From Fimbriiglobus ruber (lineage in GTDB: Bacteria > Planctomycetota > Planctomycetia > Gemmatales > Gemmataceae), in contig NZ_NIDE01000017.1 in assembly GCF_002197845.1 (NCBI RefSeq), positions 1,472,712 through 1,536,711 of the forward strand: a DNA stretch of 64,000 nucleotides. The letters are read 5' to 3'. How positions within the stretch are numbered: position 1 is the first letter of the stretch; every line of letters starts with the position of its first letter. The notes beneath the pieces were generated by a model, which saw only the letters and a list, made by a program, of their open reading frames with translations, was not told the origin of the DNA and did no database searches. A program made the position numbers and the translations under genes. Shown here piece by piece: positions 9,489 to 18,468 of this stretch.

Positions 9489-11435
9489 ATGATTTTCAAG
9501 ACTCTCGAATTGGCCGACTTGGTTTATGTGTTCCTCGGCTTACACGTCCGGCCGAAGCGCGGGACCTCGCGGCGGCCGGCGCGGGGTCCGGGACCGCGTC
9601 TGACCTTCTGCCCTTGGGGGTACGAACTCGAAGACCGAAGCCTGCCGTCGTCGCCCGCGAGCATCGCGACGATCGAGGCGTACATCGCGGATGCCCAGCT
9701 GCCGAACGGGGCGATTCGCGGGAGCGTGGAACCATCTGCCCTTCCTCCCGGGAATCCACCCCCGTCCGTCTCCGTATACGAGGTCAACAGTTACTATTCT
9801 GCCTTGGCCGTGTCCGGACTCTTGGCTGCGCCCCCAGAGGGGATCGATCGATTCGGTGTGGCCCAGCGGTATTTCAATTGGTTTCTAGCTAACCCCACGC
9901 CCCAGAACTACTGGTACGACATCAACGGCAACCCGTATACAAGTTTGCCCACGACGCCGCCCGATGCCGTCGATTCGTACGCGGCCACGTTCCTGACGGC
10001 GGTCTGGGATTACTACAAAGCAGGAGGCCCCGGGTCGTTTTTTACCGCGGCAGTTGAACTGCAATTGGAAGCGACCGCGGACGAGATCACGGCCCTGCAA
10101 CAATCGAACGGTCTTACGTGGGCCGATGCCTCTTCCGCGACGGGCATGGTGTCCGACCTGGAAGACAATTCGGAAGTTTTTAATGGCTTAGAGGCTATTG
10201 CAAATATTGATATATATATATATAATAATCAGTCCGAATCGGACATATACAGCGCTGCGGCAACATCTGTAAAAATTGGTATATGTAAATTTTTGTATAA
10301 CAACAACAATATATACGACTGGTCTTTGAACGCGCCCTCCACCCTGACCACATGGTATCCCGACACGCAAGCTCAAGTCTGGCCGATTATTAATGGCGTA
10401 ATCGACCCGACGTCGGCAATCGCGACCGGGGTCATGAATCAGGTCGATGCGGCCGTGGACGGGTTGAGTGGCTTGGGGTGGACGGCCAGAACCGACGCAT
10501 CCGCTTTCGATTATGCCGCTGTGCTCACCGGGAAGCTGCCCCAAGCGAGCGGGTCGTACGCGGTTGTCGCTCAGACCCCATACCCGACCCAGACACCCAT
10601 TCCGGACATTCAGCCGAACGATGTTGGCGTGACGACCACGGCCGATTCGGGCTTCATGCTGAAGGCGCTGACGCCGGCGGCCAACAGCGATTCGGCGACG
10701 ACCACGTACGGCTCGCCCGTGTCGATCGATGTGACGGCGAACGATTACGACATCGCGACCCCGTCCGCGGATCTGACCGTCAGCTTACCCACCGTAGCCC
10801 TTCCCGGCGTGATCGTGTTGCCGACGGGGGGCACGGCCACGGTTCAACCCAACGGTTCGATTCTCTACACTCCCGCGGCCGGCTTCGTCGGGACCGACAC
10901 CTTTACGTATCAGGTCGCGGACAGCAACGGTGCCACCTCTTTGGGCACGGTGAGCGTCACGGTGACGCCGGCAGTTACGACTACGGCGGCCTCCCCGACA
11001 TCCGCCCCGTTCAGTTCCTCCGACCAATCGGTCCCCCTGAGTGCGACCGTGACGAGCGGGGTGGGGACGGTGAACGAGGGGACGGAAACGTTTACCCTCT
11101 TGAATGGGGCGACCGCAATCGGCACGCCGGTCACGGTCAATGTGACGGCCGGGACGGCTAGTGCAAACTACCTCCTTCCGGCATCCACCGCGCCCGGATC
11201 GTACACCATTGAAGCGGTCTACAACGGGTCGACGCATTTCCTCGGGGCTTCAGACACCACCCACGTATTAACGGTCAACAATCCGCCCATCCCGACGGTG
11301 ACCGGGGTGAGCCCGGCGTCCGGGTCGACGGCCGGGGGACCGTGGTCGACATCACCGGGGCCGACCTGGGCGGGGCCACGGCCGTCGACTTCGGCGGGGT
11401 CCAGGGCACCGTCACGACCGACACCCCGACCCTGA
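9489..11435 (+). CDS. giant surface protein 1, N-terminal segment
   Basis: N-terminal part of a secreted repeat protein. Near residue 47 is a YELEDRSLPS motif, like the LEDRxxPA signature found at the start of many planctomycete extracellular proteins. Residues about 55-370 look like a helical (alpha/alpha)-type domain (DSYAATFLTAVWDYYKAG; LTWADASSATGMVSDLEDN), reminiscent of six-hairpin glycosidases but without assigned catalytic residues. Then come a cadherin/VCBS-like Ig domain (SPVSIDVTANDYD ... YTPAAGFVGTDTFTYQV) and a Big_3-like Ig domain. The true frame is lost at a G5 tract (11334-11338), where the homologous repeats have G6; codons from there to 11435 are probably out of frame. The protein probably continues in the next two segments. 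Confidence 0.7.
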   Translation: MIFKTLELADLVYVFLGLHVRPKRGTSRRPARGPGPRLTFCPWGYELEDRSLPSSPASIATIEAYIADAQLPNGAIRGSVEPSALPPGNPPPSVSVYEVNSYYSALAVSGLLAAPPEGIDRFGVAQRYFNWFLANPTPQNYWYDINGNPYTSLPTTPPDAVDSYAATFLTAVWDYYKAGGPGSFFTAAVELQLEATADEITALQQSNGLTWADASSATGMVSDLEDNSEVFNGLEAIANIDIYIYNNQSESDIYSAAATSVKIGICKFLYNNNNIYDWSLNAPSTLTTWYPDTQAQVWPIINGVIDPTSAIATGVMNQVDAAVDGLSGLGWTARTDASAFDYAAVLTGKLPQASGSYAVVAQTPYPTQTPIPDIQPNDVGVTTTADSGFMLKALTPAANSDSATTTYGSPVSIDVTANDYDIATPSADLTVSLPTVALPGVIVLPTGGTATVQPNGSILYTPAAGFVGTDTFTYQVADSNGATSLGTVSVTVTPAVTTTAASPTSAPFSSSDQSVPLSATVTSGVGTVNEGTETFTLLNGATAIGTPVTVNVTAGTASANYLLPASTAPGSYTIEAVYNGSTHFLGASDTTHVLTVNNPPIPTVTGVSPASGSTAGGPWSTSPGPTWAGPRPSTSAGSRAPSRPTPRP

Positions 11436-12661
11436 TCGTGGTCACCGCCCCGGCCGACGGGGCCGGCACGGTCGACGTCACGGTGACGACCGCCGGGGGC
11501 ACGTCGGCGACAGGAGCCGGCGACCACTTCACCTACCTGTCGCCCCCGCCCCCGCCGCCCGCGGCCCCGACGGTGACCGGGGTGAGCCCGGCGTCCGGGT
11601 CGACGGCCGGGGGGACCGTGGTCGACATCACCGGGGCCGACCTGGGCGGGGCCACGGCCGTCGACTTCGGCGGGGTCCAGGGCACCGTCACGACCGACAC
11701 CCCGACCCTGATCGTGGTCACCGCCCCGGCCGACGGGGCCGGCACGGTCGACGTCACGGTGACGACCGCCGGGGGCACGTCGGCGACAGGAGCCGGCGAC
11801 CACTTCACCTACCTGTCGCCCCCGCCCCCGCCGCCCGCGGCCCCGACGGTGACCGGGGTGAGCCCGGCGTCCGGGTCGACGGCCGGGGGGACCGTGGTCG
11901 ACATCACCGGGGCCGACCTGGGCGGGGCCACGGCCGTCGACTTCGGCGGGGTCCAGGGCACCGTCACGACCGACACCCCGACCCTGATCGTGGTCACCGC
12001 CCCGGCCGACGGGGCCGGCACGGTCGACATCACGGTGACGACCGCCGGGGGCACGTCGGCGACAGGAGCCGGCGACCACTTCACCTACCTGTCGCCCCCG
12101 CCCCCGCCGCCCGCGGCCCCGACGGTGACCGGGGTGAGCCCGGCGTCCGGGTCGACGGCCGGGGGACCGTGGTCGACATCACCGGGGCCGACCTGGGCGG
12201 GGCCACGGCCGTCGACTTCGGGGGCCTCCCGGCCGACGTTGTGGCCGACACGGCCACCGAGATCGTGGTGTTCAGCCCGGCCGACGGGGCCGGCACGGTC
12301 GACATCACGGTGACGACCGCCGGGGGCACGTCGGCGACAGGAGCCGGCGACCACTTCACCTACCTGTCGCCCCCGCCCCCGCCGCCCGCGGCCCCGACGG
12401 TGACCGGGGTGAGCCCGGCGTCCGGGTCGACGGCCGGGGGGACCGTGGTCGACATCACCGGGGCCGACCTGGGCGGGGCCACGGCCGTCGACTTCGGGGG
12501 CCTCCCGGCCGACGTTGTGGCCGACACGGCCACCGAGATCGTGGTGTTCAGCCCGGCCGACGCGGCTGGCACCGTCGATGTCACAGTGACAACTGCGGCC
12601 GGTATCTCCGCCACCACGGCCGCCGACCAGTTCACGAACCTGTCCCCGCCGACTGCGGCCC
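11292..12661 (+). repeat. five tandem 276-bp TIG-coding repeats
   Basis: Direct repeats begin at about 11293, 11568, 11844, 12120 and 12395, spaced 275, 276, 276 and 275 bases; a diverged sixth begins about 12662. Units 1-3 share one second half (FGGVQGTVTTDTPT) and units 4-5 another (FGGLPADVVADTATE). Near the start of each unit is a G tract: G5 in units 1 and 4 (11334-11338, 12161-12165), G6 in units 2, 3 and 5. The two 275-bp spacings are explained by the missing G. Confidence 0.93.
11342..12160 (+). CDS. giant surface protein 1, TIG-repeat middle segment
   Basis: Continuation, one base back in frame, of the preceding segment. It encodes consecutive IPT/TIG immunoglobulin-like domains of 92 aa each (PTVTGVSPASGSTAGGT, then TVVDITGADLGGATAVDFGG, ending GDHFTYLSPPPPPPAA). 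Pro-rich linkers separate the domains. The open frame runs on to 12313, but the sense frame changes again at the G5 tract 12161-12165. It has no start codon of its own that makes biological sense, so it is best read as part of one gene spanning 9489-14103. Confidence 0.65.
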
Positions 12662-14103
12662 CGACCGTGACCGGGGTCGGTCCGGCGTCCGGGTCGACCG
12701 CCGGGGACACCACGGTCGACATCACCGGGACGAACCTGGACGGCGCCGCGGCCGTCGATTTTGGCGGCGCCGCGGCCACGATCGTCAGCGACACGGGCAC
12801 CCAGATCGTGGTACTCAGCCCGGCCGGCACCGCGGGCGTGGTCGACGTGACGGTGACGACCGCGGCCGGCACCTCCGCCACGTCGGCCGCCGACCAGTTC
12901 ACTTACGCGGCCGCGGTCGTCCCGCCGATCGTTCCGCCGACCAGTCCGCCCCCGCCCGTCGTTCCGCCGACCAGTCCGCCCCCGTCGCCGCCCGTCGTTC
13001 CGCCGGTCAGTTCGCCACCGGCCGTCCCGCCGGTCAGTCCGCCACCACCCGCCGTTCCCCCGACACCGAAGACAGCCCTGGTCGGGTACCCGGAGTTCGC
13101 CGTCGGGGCGGACGCCGGGGGGACCGGGACGGTCAGCGTGTACAACGCGGACGGCTCGGTCGCCAATATCGCGACACCGTTCGGGGCGTCGTACACCGCC
13201 GGCGTCCGGGTTGCCGTCGCCGACTTGAACAACGACGGGTCGCCCGAACTGATCGCCGGGACCGGCCCCGGGGTCGAGAACCAGGTCGTCATCCTGGACG
13301 GCACCACCCACCAGCAACTGGCGTCGTTCGAGCCGTTCGAGGCGACGTTCACGGACGGCGTGTTCGTCACCACCGGGGACGTGAACGGGGACGGCGTCCC
13401 CGATCTCATCGTGACCCCGGACCAGTCCGGCGGGCCGATCGTCGCGGTTTACGACGGGGCCGCACTGGGCCGGGGACAGGTGGTCCAACTGGCCCGCTTT
13501 TTCGGCATCAACGACCCGAACTTCCGGGGCGGGGACCGGGCCGCCCTGGGCGACATCAACGGGGACGGGGTGGCCGACCTGATCGTGTCGGCCGGGTTCG
13601 GGGGCGGCCCGCGGGTCGCCATCTACAACGGCGCGACGATCGCGTCCGGCGCCCCGACCGAACTCATGCCGGACTTCTTCGCGTTCGAGAGTTCGCTCCG
13701 CAATGGGGTATACGTGACGGCCGGGGATCTGACCGGGAAGGGCTACGCCGACCTGATCTTCGGGGCCGGCCCGGGTGGCGCCCCGCGGGTCCGGGCGGTC
13801 GACCCGGCCGTCCTGCTATCGGCCGCCGGGAACTTCCAGTCGCTCGACGATCCGGCCGTGTCCGGGGCCGGGTTGGCCGACTTCTTCTCCGGCGACCCGA
13901 CCACCCGGGGCGGGGCCCGCGTGGCCGTGGCGAACCTGGACGGGGACGCGAAGGCGGACGTGATCGTCGGGTCCGGAACCGGGACGGCGTCGACGGTCAC
14001 CGCGTACACCGGGGCGGCGATCGCGGCCAACCCGACCGACCCGGCGGCCGACCTGAACTTCGACGCCCTGCCCGGGTTCACCGGCGGCGTGTTCGTCGGG
14101 TAA
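12169..14103 (+). CDS. giant surface protein 1, C-terminal segment (TIG and FG-GAP)
   Basis: Last part of the same predicted gene. It carries the remaining TIG domains, a Pro/Ser/Val-rich hinge (about 12920-13065), and a C-terminal module of about 340 aa with FG-GAP/VCBS repeats whose Ca-binding loops read DLNNDGSPEL, DVNGDGVPDL and DINGDGVADL. Such modules form beta-propellers on cell-surface or secreted proteins. The module is nearly the same as that of surface protein 2, and both end in a GFxGGVFVG tail, perhaps a sorting or anchoring end. A strong palindromic terminator follows. Confidence 0.72.
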   Translation: MVDITGADLGGATAVDFGGLPADVVADTATEIVVFSPADGAGTVDITVTTAGGTSATGAGDHFTYLSPPPPPPAAPTVTGVSPASGSTAGGTVVDITGADLGGATAVDFGGLPADVVADTATEIVVFSPADAAGTVDVTVTTAAGISATTAADQFTNLSPPTAAPTVTGVGPASGSTAGDTTVDITGTNLDGAAAVDFGGAAATIVSDTGTQIVVLSPAGTAGVVDVTVTTAAGTSATSAADQFTYAAAVVPPIVPPTSPPPPVVPPTSPPPSPPVVPPVSSPPAVPPVSPPPPAVPPTPKTALVGYPEFAVGADAGGTGTVSVYNADGSVANIATPFGASYTAGVRVAVADLNNDGSPELIAGTGPGVENQVVILDGTTHQQLASFEPFEATFTDGVFVTTGDVNGDGVPDLIVTPDQSGGPIVAVYDGAALGRGQVVQLARFFGINDPNFRGGDRAALGDINGDGVADLIVSAGFGGGPRVAIYNGATIASGAPTELMPDFFAFESSLRNGVYVTAGDLTGKGYADLIFGAGPGGAPRVRAVDPAVLLSAAGNFQSLDDPAVSGAGLADFFSGDPTTRGGARVAVANLDGDAKADVIVGSGTGTASTVTAYTGAAIAANPTDPAADLNFDALPGFTGGVFVG

Positions 14104-14613: not shown

Positions 14614-15606
14614 ATGGGCGTGAACTCAACGTGGCGGAAATGGCTGGCCCAATTGGCTGAATCCCGCGGTAGGAGCGGGAGCCACCGACCGATCGCCCGA
14701 AGGGGGTTGGAGATTCTGACCCTGGAAGACCGGTGTACGCCGGCCGCCAGCGTGCAATTCAGTGCGGCATCGGAGTCAGTAAATAATTCGGCCGGGTCGT
14801 TCAGTATCCCGGTGACGGTCACGACTACACCGACGACGTTCACCACCGGGACCTATAACTCGGCCGTCGCCGTCGACTCCGCCGGCAACGCGTACGTCGC
14901 CGACGATGAGATCGAGGGAACGGTCGACAAAGTGACGCCCGACGGGACCATCAGTACATTCGCGTCCGGGTTCAACGGTCCGGTTGCTCTGGCCTTCGAC
15001 CCCGCAGACAATCTGTTCGTTCTAAACGCCGGTTCCGGCACCGTATCGGAGGTCACGCCCGCAGGCAGTGTCAGCACGTTCGCGGCCGGATTTACCAACC
15101 CGGTTGCTCTGGCCTTCGACCCCACGGGCAATTTGTACGTTGTCTCCGGAAAATCGGTTTACCGGGCGTCCCCCGGCGGGGTCATTGCCGCCGCGTATTC
15201 GTTCGGCGCCCCGGTCGGGGGAATCGCGTTCGACGCGGCCGGCAATCTCTACGCCATCCTGGTATACGAAGGTACCGGGCCACACAGCCTCTCAACAGGA
15301 GGGGTTATCGCCGAGGTGGCAGACGGCACGACAAGTGTCTTCGCTCTCAGTACTAATACGGGCGGGGATCTGGTGCTCGACGGGGCCGGCAATCTGTACA
15401 CATCTGGCCCAGGCTACTTGACTGAGGTCAGCCCGGACGGAACCTCCCGCTCGCTCTCGATCGGGGTAACTAATCCGAACGCCGTGGCAGTAAGCCACGG
15501 CGTATTATACGTTGCCGCCGCAACGACGCTTAATGAAGTCAGTACGGCCCCGCTCACCGTTCCGGATTGTACCCTCAACGGCAGTGCCGCGGACTCACCG
15601 GTGTAA
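14614..15606 (+). CDS. giant surface protein 2, N-terminal segment
   Basis: Residues 1-50 hold basic sequence and a LEILTLEDRCTPA signature of planctomycete extracellular proteins. A Calx-beta-like start (SVNNSAGSFSIPVTV) is interrupted by NHL-type propeller repeats (AVAVDSAGNAYVAD; ALAFDPADNLFVL; GIAFDAAGNLYAI), after which LTVPDCTLNGSAADSP resumes Calx-beta-like sequence. The frame ends at TAA 15604-15606, but the next segment is in the same frame, and sequence matching the rest of the Calx-beta domain (GVTATTTS, AGQTT, ATITGT) appears in other frames just after. One long gene with local damage is more likely than two genes. Confidence 0.68.
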   Translation: MGVNSTWRKWLAQLAESRGRSGSHRPIARRGLEILTLEDRCTPAASVQFSAASESVNNSAGSFSIPVTVTTTPTTFTTGTYNSAVAVDSAGNAYVADDEIEGTVDKVTPDGTISTFASGFNGPVALAFDPADNLFVLNAGSGTVSEVTPAGSVSTFAAGFTNPVALAFDPTGNLYVVSGKSVYRASPGGVIAAAYSFGAPVGGIAFDAAGNLYAILVYEGTGPHSLSTGGVIAEVADGTTSVFALSTNTGGDLVLDGAGNLYTSGPGYLTEVSPDGTSRSLSIGVTNPNAVAVSHGVLYVAAATTLNEVSTAPLTVPDCTLNGSAADSPV

Positions 15607-15819
15607 CGGCCACCACCACGTCCGCTAATCACCCAGCCGGTCAGACGACGCGACCATCACCGGTACGGGGCTCGACCGTCGACGATTGACCAGGGTCGGT
15701 CGGGACGGCCATTACCTGGACGTTCCGACACCGCCACTCTACCGACAACGAGCCAGCAAACTTTCGTCGTCTCGCCGGCGGCCACGGAGTCCGTCTCGAG
15801 TCCCGAAGGTGGTAGTACT
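15607..15819 (+). pseudogene. frame-broken Calx-beta stretch inside surface protein 2
   Basis: This gap is free of stops in the flanking frame but codes for unlikely residues there. Pieces that look right lie in other frames: GVTATTTSANHPAGQTT, then ATITGT, before the normal frame returns near TSQQTFVVSPAATESV. The matching region of the second Calx-beta copy (about 16690-16925) is intact. At least two compensating indels are needed, either real decay or sequence errors. Confidence 0.55.
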
Positions 15820-18468
15820 GTGAATTTGTCCGATGGTACGTTCAGCATTCCGGTCACACTGTCGGGTACACCATCCATTCCCCTCGCGGCCGGTTTCAGT
15901 GAACCCAGCGCCATGGCCGCCGCAGCCGGCAACCTGTACGTAGCCGATTCCAGTGACAACGCGGTCTACAAGGTGACATCTTCGGGCGTGGTCGATACGG
16001 TCGCGTCCGGTTTCAACGATCCCGCGGGCCTGGCGCTCGATGTGGCCGGCAACCTGTACGTAGCCGATTACGGAGACGGGACGGTCTTCAAGGTCACACC
16101 GGCAGGAGTGAAGAGTGTCTTCGCGTCCGGATTTGAAAGACCGGCCGGTTTGGCGATCGACGCGGCCGGCAATTTGTATGTTTCCGATTCCGGCAGCGGT
16201 AACCAGTACGCCAACGATTCGAGCGGTCGGGTCGTCAAGGTGACCCCGGCCGGCGTATCGACCGCCGTGGCGACCGGACTGTCCGACCCGACGGCGTTGG
16301 CGATCGCTCCGGACGGTACTTTGTACGTTGTAGAAAATGGCACGCAGTCATCATTTAATAATTCCCCAGATGATGATTTCCCGATCGCCGTGGTCGATGA
16401 AATAACCTCCGCGGGGACAGTTAGGCTAACTCAGAAAGCCGCAATTAGCAGCATGGTTTATTACGCCGGAAATCTTTTACTATCAGTCGGAACGCAGCCG
16501 GGGATAACGCAGCCGGGGATATACGAGATAACCTTGAATGGTGCGGCACTACCGATTTCGGGCTCAGGTGGTCCCATCCTGGCGATTGACCCGGTCGGAC
16601 GGCTATATTACTCGGTCGGAGGCCAGCCTAACTCCTCCGCTAACTCCGGTGAAGCGACGGTCTATCAGCAGGGTTTTACAAATTCGCCGCCTGTAACAGT
16701 CCCGTTTTCGATCGGCGGCACGGCTATCCCCGGGGTCGACTACTCTGTTACGACGCCCAGTCCGCTCACCTTCGCGCCCGGGCAGACGCTTGTCTCTATC
16801 ACAGGCCAATTGATCGATACCGGGCCGGCTGGCAACGGAAAAACAATCACGCTTAATCTGGATACACCAACAAATGCCGTTCTCGGTACTAATGCGTCTT
16901 CGACCCTGACCCTGTCCGACACGCCGGTGATCGGCATTTTCGGTTCGGGTACGCCGTCTGGCTCGATAACCGGCGGGAAACTAATCACGATTTCCGGGGC
17001 CAACCTGGGCAACGCCACGGTCGTCGACTTCGGGACCACCCCGGCCACCATCGTGAGCGACACCGCTACCCAGATCGTCGTCACCACTCCGGCCGAGACC
17101 GCGGGCACGGTCGACGTGACGGTGACAACCCCGGGCGGCACGACGCCCTCGGATGGCGTCCAGTTCACGTACCTTGACGTGCCAACCGTCACGGCGGTCA
17201 GCCCGACGAGCGGCTCACCGACTGGGGGAACGACCGTCACCATCACCGGGACCAACTTGTCCGATCCCATCGCCACCGTCGTCTTCGGCGGTTCGGCGGC
17301 CACCATCGTGAGCGACACCGCCACCCAGGTCGTTGTCACCAGTCCGGCGCACCCGGCCGGCACGGTCGACGTGACGGTCACGACGCCCGGCGGCACGTCC
17401 GCCACGTCGGCCGCCGACCACTTTACCTACGTCTCGGCGGTATCCCTCACCGGCTACTCGCAGTTCGCCGTCGGGGCGGACGCGGGGGGGACCGGGACCG
17501 TTACCGTGTACAACCCCGACCAGTCGGTCGCGTACACCGCGACCCCGTTCGGAACCTCCTATACGGCCGGCGTCCGGGTCGCCGTCGCCGACCTGAACAA
17601 CGACGGGGCCCCCGAACTGATCGCCGGGACCGGGCCGGGGGTCGAGAACCAGGTCGTCATTTTGGACGGCAAGACCCACCAGCCGCTCGTCTCGTTCGTC
17701 CCGTTCGAGGCGACGTTTACCGGCGGCGTGTTCGTCACCACCGGGGACGTGAACGGGGACGGCGTCCCCGATCTCATCGTCACCCCGGACCAGTCCGGCG
17801 GGCCGATCGTGGCCGTCTACGACGGGGCCGCCCTCGGTAAGGGTCAGGTCGTCCAGGTCGCCCGGTTCTTCGGCATCAACGACCCGAGCTTCCGGGGCGG
17901 GGACCGGGCCGCCCTGGGCGACATCAACGGGGACGGGGTGGCCGACCTGATCGTGTCGGCCGGGTTCGGGGGCGGCCCGCGGGTCGCCATCTACAACGGC
18001 GCGACGATCGCGTCCGGCGCCCCGACCGAACTCATGCCGGACTTCTTCGCGTTCGAGAGTACCCTGCGGAACGGGGTGTACGTGACGGCGGGCGATCTCA
18101 CAGGCAAGGGGTACGCGGACCTGATCTTCGGGGCGGGTCCGGGCGGCGGTCCACGGGTCCGGGCCGTCGACCCTGCGGTCCTGCTGGCGGCCGGCAGCTT
18201 CTCGACGCTTGACGACGCGGCCGTGTCCACCGCCGGGGTGGCCGACTTCTTCGCGGGCGACCCGACCAGCCGGGGCGGGGTACGGGTGGCCGTCGCGGAT
18301 CTAGACGGGAGCAACCAGGCGAGTCTGGTGGTCGGATCTGGGGCGGGCGTGGCGGCCGCGGTCACCACGTACACGGGCAAAGCGATCCTGGCCAACCCCG
18401 CGTCCCCGACCGCCGATTTCGACCTTGATCCCTTGCCAGGATTCAGCGGGGGCGTGTTCGTCGGGTAG
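15820..18468 (+). CDS. giant surface protein 2, C-terminal segment (NHL, Calx-beta, TIG, FG-GAP)
   Basis: The 15820 GTG is only where a start codon first occurs; the coding frame is open upstream. Order of domains: Calx-beta first half (GTFSIPVTLSGTPS), a set of NHL repeats (GNLYVADSSDNAVYKV; LALDVAGNLYVADYGDG), Calx-beta second half (VPFSIGGTAIPGVDYS ... TITLNLDTPTNA), two IPT/TIG domains, and a 340-aa FG-GAP module with DLNNDGAPEL, DVNGDGVPDL and DINGDGVADL calcium loops. It ends GFSGGVFVG like surface protein 1. It is probably secreted or on the cell surface, with a role in adhesion or carbohydrate contact; no enzyme site was recognised. Confidence 0.75.
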   Translation: MNLSDGTFSIPVTLSGTPSIPLAAGFSEPSAMAAAAGNLYVADSSDNAVYKVTSSGVVDTVASGFNDPAGLALDVAGNLYVADYGDGTVFKVTPAGVKSVFASGFERPAGLAIDAAGNLYVSDSGSGNQYANDSSGRVVKVTPAGVSTAVATGLSDPTALAIAPDGTLYVVENGTQSSFNNSPDDDFPIAVVDEITSAGTVRLTQKAAISSMVYYAGNLLLSVGTQPGITQPGIYEITLNGAALPISGSGGPILAIDPVGRLYYSVGGQPNSSANSGEATVYQQGFTNSPPVTVPFSIGGTAIPGVDYSVTTPSPLTFAPGQTLVSITGQLIDTGPAGNGKTITLNLDTPTNAVLGTNASSTLTLSDTPVIGIFGSGTPSGSITGGKLITISGANLGNATVVDFGTTPATIVSDTATQIVVTTPAETAGTVDVTVTTPGGTTPSDGVQFTYLDVPTVTAVSPTSGSPTGGTTVTITGTNLSDPIATVVFGGSAATIVSDTATQVVVTSPAHPAGTVDVTVTTPGGTSATSAADHFTYVSAVSLTGYSQFAVGADAGGTGTVTVYNPDQSVAYTATPFGTSYTAGVRVAVADLNNDGAPELIAGTGPGVENQVVILDGKTHQPLVSFVPFEATFTGGVFVTTGDVNGDGVPDLIVTPDQSGGPIVAVYDGAALGKGQVVQVARFFGINDPSFRGGDRAALGDINGDGVADLIVSAGFGGGPRVAIYNGATIASGAPTELMPDFFAFESTLRNGVYVTAGDLTGKGYADLIFGAGPGGGPRVRAVDPAVLLAAGSFSTLDDAAVSTAGVADFFAGDPTSRGGVRVAVADLDGSNQASLVVGSGAGVAAAVTTYTGKAILANPASPTADFDLDPLPGFSGGVFVG

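What the first reader, a model, noticed from the sequence alone, without database searches (positions are those of the whole stretch)
11292..12661. 276-bp tandem TIG repeats with G5/G6 tracts that set the reading frame
Five near-identical units each carry a G tract close to the start. Where the tract is G5 (units 1 and 4) the frame shifts back by one. Homopolymer length at repeat heads could act as a phase switch, or simply be miscalled.
Basis: seen in the sequence. Interest (0 to 1): 0.55.

Follow-up and report, generated by a model that had tools for sequence, protein, structure and literature searches.

The report
Tandem TIG repeats with homopolymer frameshifts
A large surface-type protein gene of a planctomycete carries five near-identical 276-base repeats, and the one-base G-run differences that break its reading frame look like ordinary one-base losses (most likely sequence-assembly errors) rather than a genetic switch.

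Summary
In detail: five tandem units start at 11292, 11567, 11843, 12119 and 12394. Units 1 and 4 have G5 (275 bp); units 2, 3 and 5 have G6 (276 bp). A codon-usage model also moves the coding frame by -1 near units 1 and 4. The gene, about 9489-14103, is therefore read as three ORFs (Big_9, Big_3_5, TIG array, FG-GAP).

The tract is the GGG GGG spelling of the TIG domain's Gly-Gly pair. That spelling is rare (1 of 159 TIG-like heads in foreign loci) and was multiplied here by duplication.

The switch is not supported. Similar one-base losses occur across this assembly: of 58 frame-break candidates in 1.664 Mb, 48 are -1; of 21 I kept by eye as non-mobile, 20 are -1, and 10 of those 20 lie at G/C runs of 5 or more (2.9 expected). 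They include a catalase and a response regulator. But the breaks are clustered by region, so uniform error alone does not fit.

Best reading: consensus deletions at G6 in a tandem repeat (0.65). Real one-base deletions are the main rival. No read data could be examined.

The parts
9489..11435 (+). 5' ORF as read (648 aa): N-terminal part, Big_9 and Big_3_5 Ig-like domains, then out-of-frame tail after the unit 1 tract
11292..11566 (+). repeat unit 1, 275 bp, TIG domain; G5 tract at 11334-11338, frame moves -1
11567..11842 (+). repeat unit 2, 276 bp, TIG domain; G6 tract at 11609-11614, GGG GGG = Gly-Gly
11843..12118 (+). repeat unit 3, 276 bp, TIG domain; G6 tract at 11885-11890
12119..12393 (+). 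repeat unit 4, 275 bp, TIG domain; G5 tract at 12161-12165, frame moves -1 again
12394..12669 (+). repeat unit 5, 276 bp, TIG domain; G6 tract at 12436-12441
12661..12906 (+). sixth, diverged TIG domain (GGG GAC at the tract position)
11342..12313 (+). middle ORF as read; follows the coding frame only as far as about 12161
12169..14103 (+). 3' ORF as read (644 aa): TIG domains and C-terminal FG-GAP repeats

Best explanation
One long surface-type gene (about 9489-14103) with a tandem array of TIG domains. The head of each repeat encodes the conserved Gly-Gly of the TIG domain as GGG GGG, a six-G run. In two of the five copies the deposited consensus lacks one G, most likely because sequencing and assembly under-counted a G homopolymer inside a near-identical tandem repeat, where reads are hard to place. 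The split into three ORFs then does not exist in the cell and the gene makes one protein. Shown: the repeats, the tract lengths, the frame moves, and the surplus of -1 frame breaks in this assembly. Inferred: that the deletions are not in the organism, and that the protein is secreted or at the surface.
For: (1) In 1.664 Mb of this genome one detector gives 58 frame-switch candidates, 48 of them -1 and 10 +1. Of 21 kept by eye as non-mobile, 20 are -1, although the detector finds planted insertions (53 of 67) more readily than planted deletions (35 of 67). (2) 10 of those 20 have a G/C run of 5 or more in their localisation range; 2.9 are expected for coding windows of the same widths (simulated P 2e-4). 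Without the two window events it is 8 of 18 against 2.6 expected (P 0.002). (3) Breaks hit genes unlike surface proteins: a catalase (profile 1-42, then 44-382), a response regulator (receiver, then LuxR-type HTH), kinases, and an MgtC-family protein whose downstream part matches no family. (4) 31 near-identical pairs of repeated stretches (at least 600 bp, at most 2 substitutions; 37,131 aligned bases; pairs share copies) show 18 substitutions and 12 gaps; 11 gaps are one base, 9 of these in G/C runs of 3-6. (5) Of 7 TIG heads with a pure G run, 3 (the G5 ones) are broken; of 25 with other Gly-Gly codons, none (Fisher P 0.007, or 0.03 without C17:533694, whose original codons are unknown). 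(6) Repetition alone does not break frames: the C9 TIG array holds an exact 742-bp repeat, has one G6 head among those read, and is one open frame of 1985 aa. (7) Trycycler (PMC8442456, passages seen): residual errors of long-read assemblies are mostly homopolymer lengths, and those left after short-read polishing lie mostly in repeats.
Against: No reads, coverage or sequencing method could be seen. The kept breaks are unevenly spread: 3 in 800 kb of C1/C2/C4 against 7 in 200 kb of C9 (chi-square P 0.003), which also fits real gene decay in islands. Half of the 20 are not at a run of 5 or more. The -1 excess depends on my sorting: one dropped +1 candidate (C1:639226) is not visibly mobile, and in the first, TIG-enriched sample of 464 kb 4 of 14 candidates are +1, one of them (C17:534130) in a TIG/FG-GAP gene. 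Real slippage can also favour deletions and G runs; against an assumed 3:1 deletion bias the excess gives P 0.004 (20 of 21) or 0.013 (20 of 22). The array rate of 2 of 5 exceeds the genome's rate for runs of six (5 breaks against 350 runs present; P 0.002-0.007), so something beyond the average error rate acts there.
Confidence: 0.65

Rival explanations
1. The one-base deletions are real: replication slippage shortened two G6 tracts, and the gene is a recent pseudogene or makes a 648-aa truncated protein. No switching is involved.
For: Kept frame breaks are clustered by region, as real decay in islands would be. Slippage at G/C runs is ordinary biology (recalled).
Against: 20 of 21 kept breaks are -1. 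Nonsense-like breaks are few: 10 in the same sample with power 20 of 67, and by eye most read like ordinary gene ends. The downstream parts have no other stops in their own frames.
Confidence: 0.2
2. The tracts are a phase-variable switch: reversible G5/G6 changes at any of five repeat heads set whether the C-terminal TIG and FG-GAP part is made; the C-terminus is in frame only if the number of G5 units is a multiple of three.
For: The tracts sit in a surface-type gene, tract length does set the frame, and the array rate of 2 of 5 exceeds the genome rate. In Neisseria meningitidis a C5/C6 coding tract varies between strains (PMC5084427, passage seen).
Against: Six is short: in the same paper it is tracts of 8 or more that were predominantly variable in re-sequenced genomes. 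The tract is a Gly-Gly codon pair of a known domain. Similar breaks occur in a catalase and a response regulator. No length mixture has been seen here.
Confidence: 0.1
3. Recoding: the ribosome or polymerase slips at G5 so that the full protein is made from a G5 gene.
For: Each G5 needs a -1 move, and G runs can be slippery (recalled). A transposase-like element in this genome keeps the same G6 in three of three copies found, and two of these copies were flagged as -1 frame breaks there.
Against: In frame the site reads C_GGG_GGA, not the canonical X_XXY_YYZ with three equal bases first (read from the sequence; rule recalled). Units 1 and 2 are identical apart from the G, so any downstream signal would also act on the in-frame G6 unit.
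Confidence: 0.03

Closest known systems
IPT/TIG domain repeats (Pfam PF01833) in large multi-domain bacterial proteins with FG-GAP repeats
   Same: Units 2, 3, 5 and the sixth match PF01833 over the cut-off over (nearly) the full profile; units 1 and 4 match over the cut-off from profile position 14, that is, from about the tract. FG-GAP lies downstream.
   Different: The Gly-Gly pair is spelt GGG GGG, rare in the foreign loci looked at: 1 of 159 TIG-like heads.
Residual homopolymer-length errors of long-read or hybrid bacterial assemblies (Trycycler, PMC8442456, passages seen)
   Same: One-base length differences, often in G/C runs, that break frames.
   Different: The sequencing method of this genome is not known to me, so the source of error is inferred. 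Trycycler reports 44% insertions and 47% deletions; here 48 of 58 candidates, and 20 of 21 kept, are -1.
Homopolymer contingency loci (Neisseria, Campylobacter)
   Same: A coding G/C tract whose length sets the frame of a surface-type gene.
   Different: Tracts here are 5-6 long, repeated five times in one gene, and no variation in time or between isolates has been shown.

Membership tests
IPT/TIG domain (PF01833) | Match to the Pfam profile over its curated cut-off | tested here: met
   All five units plus the sixth are over the cut-off; units 1 and 4 only from profile position 14
IPT/TIG domain (PF01833) | Gly-Gly pair near the start of the domain (as a defining feature recalled) | tested here: met
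   In-frame GG in 29 of the 45 heads read; the tract is this pair
Phase-variable homopolymer locus | Tract length changes the reading frame of the gene | tested here: met
Phase-variable homopolymer locus | Reversible length variation within a culture or between isolates | not testable with these tools
   No reads were held, and I found no close ortholog of the gene in the 40 relatives searched
Phase-variable homopolymer locus | Tract long enough to be hypermutable (8 or more in PMC5084427) | tested here: not met
   Tracts are 5-6; the paper also notes one C5/C6 variable tract, so this lowers but does not exclude
Consensus homopolymer error | The same kind of error in unrelated genes of the assembly | tested here: met
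   the breaks are however clustered by region
Consensus homopolymer error | Disagreement between accurate reads and the consensus | not testable with these tools
   No reads held

The most novel reading that the evidence does not exclude
A modular switch: a tandem array in which every repeat head carries the same short G tract, so that the number of shortened heads modulo three decides whether the C-terminal part of a surface protein is displayed, with repeat duplication multiplying the number of mutable sites.
Probability: 0.06. Interest if true: 0.6.

Novelty: not a real feature. Interest (0 to 1): 0.15.

Why it matters
If the deletions are errors, the deposited genome over-splits genes, and large repeat proteins of this species are read as fragments; the practical gain is a warning for anyone mining this assembly for phase variation. 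If the tracts truly vary, it would be an unusual case of contingency sites multiplied by domain duplication, in a planctomycete.

Tried and rejected
Programmed recoding at G5: the slippery heptamer is imperfect, and units 1 and 2 are identical apart from the G. Repeat structure alone as the cause: the C9 array holds an exact 742-bp repeat 804 bp apart and is one open frame of 1985 aa. A conserved function of the G6 tract: foreign TIG-like heads (49 loci, plus strand, three frames) use GGCGGC in 109 of 159 cases and GGGGGG in 1. An ortholog to compare: in 41 genomes (own plus 40) the part before residue 390 was matched, in the listed rows, mainly by two distant stretches of 30% identity (G010, G002); that list was cut. 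Control genomes: in 400 kb each of two single-contig relatives (G010, GC 0.58; G003, GC 0.53) the same detector gave 7 and 3 candidates, by eye mostly gene borders; GC here is 0.64, so the control is imperfect. A third, draft-genome control could not be fetched. Sequencing method of the genome: the likely paper was not held, and other searches did not give it.

Rows dropped before the count of 21: 37 of the 58 candidates, judged by eye from the translations as transposase, recombinase or other mobile-element breaks, weak scores, or gene borders; 28 of them are -1 and 9 are +1. One dropped +1 (C1:639226) is not visibly mobile; I took it for a composition effect. The survey covers 1.664 of 12.36 Mb. 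The first sample (464 kb, chosen partly around TIG loci, window included) had 14 candidates, 10 of them -1 and 4 +1; it is not in the counts, apart from the two window events. In one search, 45 of the 49 TIG matches were read; 4 were not, their stretches not being held as tiles. My first expectation for G/C runs (and the P of 6e-5) used fixed widths; one search replaces it with each candidate's own width.

Full report
WHAT IS THERE. The array at 11292-12669 is real and as described: five units with G runs of 5, 6, 6, 5, 6 and unit lengths of 275, 276, 276, 275, 276. The frame moves by -1 at units 1 and 4. This follows from open frames and, separately, from a codon-usage HMM with frame-change states. 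The upstream ORF starts at 9489 and, as read, ends at 11435 after 648 aa. Domains are Big_9 and Big_3_5 upstream, TIG in the array, and FG-GAP downstream. The window lies at G000:C17:1472712-1536711 of a 12.36-Mb genome in 20 contigs. A Fimbriiglobus MAG carries a locus related to the FG-GAP part (L041).

WHY THE TRACT EXISTS. The tract is the Gly-Gly pair near the head of the TIG domain. Of 49 TIG matches in the genome I read 45: 29 have an in-frame Gly-Gly pair, 4 of them as GGG GGG (units 2, 3, 5 and C9:264236); 3 are broken with G5 (units 1 and 4, C17:533694); 13 have no such pair. In 49 foreign loci, 159 TIG-like heads were found on the plus strand and one is GGGGGG. So the G6 looks like a local codon choice copied by duplication, not a conserved signal.

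IS IT SPECIAL TO THIS GENE. No. The survey (1.664 Mb) gave 58 frame-switch candidates, 48 of them -1 and 10 +1. After removal by eye of 37 (mobile elements, weak or border cases; 28 are -1 and 9 are +1), 21 remain: 20 are -1 and one is +1. Ten of the 20 have a G/C run of 5 or more in their localisation range, against 2.9 expected for the same widths (P 2e-4); without the two window events it is 8 of 18 against 2.6 (P 0.002). A power test with planted changes found 35 of 67 deletions, 53 of 67 insertions and 20 of 67 stops. Broken genes include a catalase whose two parts cover profile positions 1-42 and 44-382, a response regulator split between receiver and HTH, an MgtC-family protein (downstream part unmatched) and kinases; of the 20 proteins scanned in those two calls, 7 matched no family. 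In the first sample of 464 kb, chosen partly around TIG loci, 14 candidates were found, 10 of them -1 and 4 +1, the window's two included. Breaks at or beside G5 or C5 runs were seen there at C17:533694 (TIG), C4:626753 (gene with TIG and FG-GAP) and C9:253175. One +1 (C17:534130) lies in the same TIG/FG-GAP gene as C17:533694. Two single-contig relatives gave 7 and 3 candidates in 400 kb each, by eye mostly gene borders, but their GC is lower.

REPEAT COPIES. In 31 near-identical pairs of repeated stretches (37,131 aligned bases, at most 2 substitutions each; pairs share copies) there are 18 substitutions and 12 gaps. Eleven gaps are one base, and 9 of these lie in G/C runs of 3-6; 5 of 17 pairs without any substitution still have a gap. 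That is a high share of gaps (my judgement), as expected if homopolymer counts are unreliable in repeats. In the wider set of 70 pairs at 96% identity or more the figures are 597 substitutions and 50 one-base gaps. Repetition alone is not enough: the C9 TIG array holds an exact 742-bp repeat and stays open for 1985 aa.

AGAINST. The kept -1 breaks are clustered: 3 in 800 kb (C1, C2, C4), 6 in 400 kb (C17), 2 in 200 kb (C5), 7 in 200 kb (C9), 2 in the 64-kb window (chi-square P 0.003). A uniform error rate does not give this; local loss of polishing or real decay would. The array rate, 2 of 5, is above the background for runs of six (5 breaks against 350 such runs in coding sequence). Half of the kept breaks are not at runs of 5 or more. 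The -1 excess rests partly on my sorting; against an assumed 3:1 deletion bias it gives P 0.004 to 0.013. Hence I do not go above 0.65 for the artefact.

LITERATURE. Trycycler (PMC8442456; passages seen): residual errors are mostly homopolymer lengths, and after short-read polishing most of those left lie in repeats. N. meningitidis survey (PMC5084427; passages seen): tracts of 8 or more were predominantly variable in re-sequenced genomes, but one C5/C6 coding tract varies between strains. A Singulisphaera paper (PMC11279305; passages seen) cites the F. ruber genome paper, which is not held. Of the papers listed I saw only the listings, apart from these three.

VERDICT. Observation confirmed. 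The switch is unsupported; a consensus deletion at G6 in tandem repeats is most likely, and real one-base deletions are the main rival. Interest is low unless reads show length mixtures.

Noticed in passing
window 15592-15820: Between ORFs 14614-15606 and 15820-18468 (same frame, likely one gene) a stretch of about 200 bases reads in changing frames, as if several one-base insertions and deletions lay close together.
   Followed up: partly
G000:C17 about 360258 and 367901; L085 about 9263: A repeated transposase-like element has CCGGGGGGAGCC with G6 in three of three copies found; two copies were flagged there as -1 frame breaks. A possible programmed frameshift site of the form G_GGG_GGA.
   Followed up: partly
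G000: C17:346365, C5:588605, C5:436556, C9:317539: A repeated element changes frame beside C6-A5-C6 in three copies (-1); one copy (C5:436556) has C5 in place of the second C6 and shifts the other way.
   Followed up: no
G000:C9:264236-268999: A second large TIG array, with an exact 742-bp internal repeat, in one open frame of 1985 aa.
   Followed up: partly
G000:C17:533694-534130 (L072): Another TIG/FG-GAP gene with three frame changes within about 450 bases (two -1, one +1), the first at a G5 Gly-Gly head.
   Followed up: partly
L021-L040: The best TIG matches by the pattern search are in Bradyrhizobium and other Proteobacteria (up to 57%; 60% in a Desulfuromonadales MAG) rather than planctomycetes; records of the own genome may be left out of that collection.
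   Followed up: no
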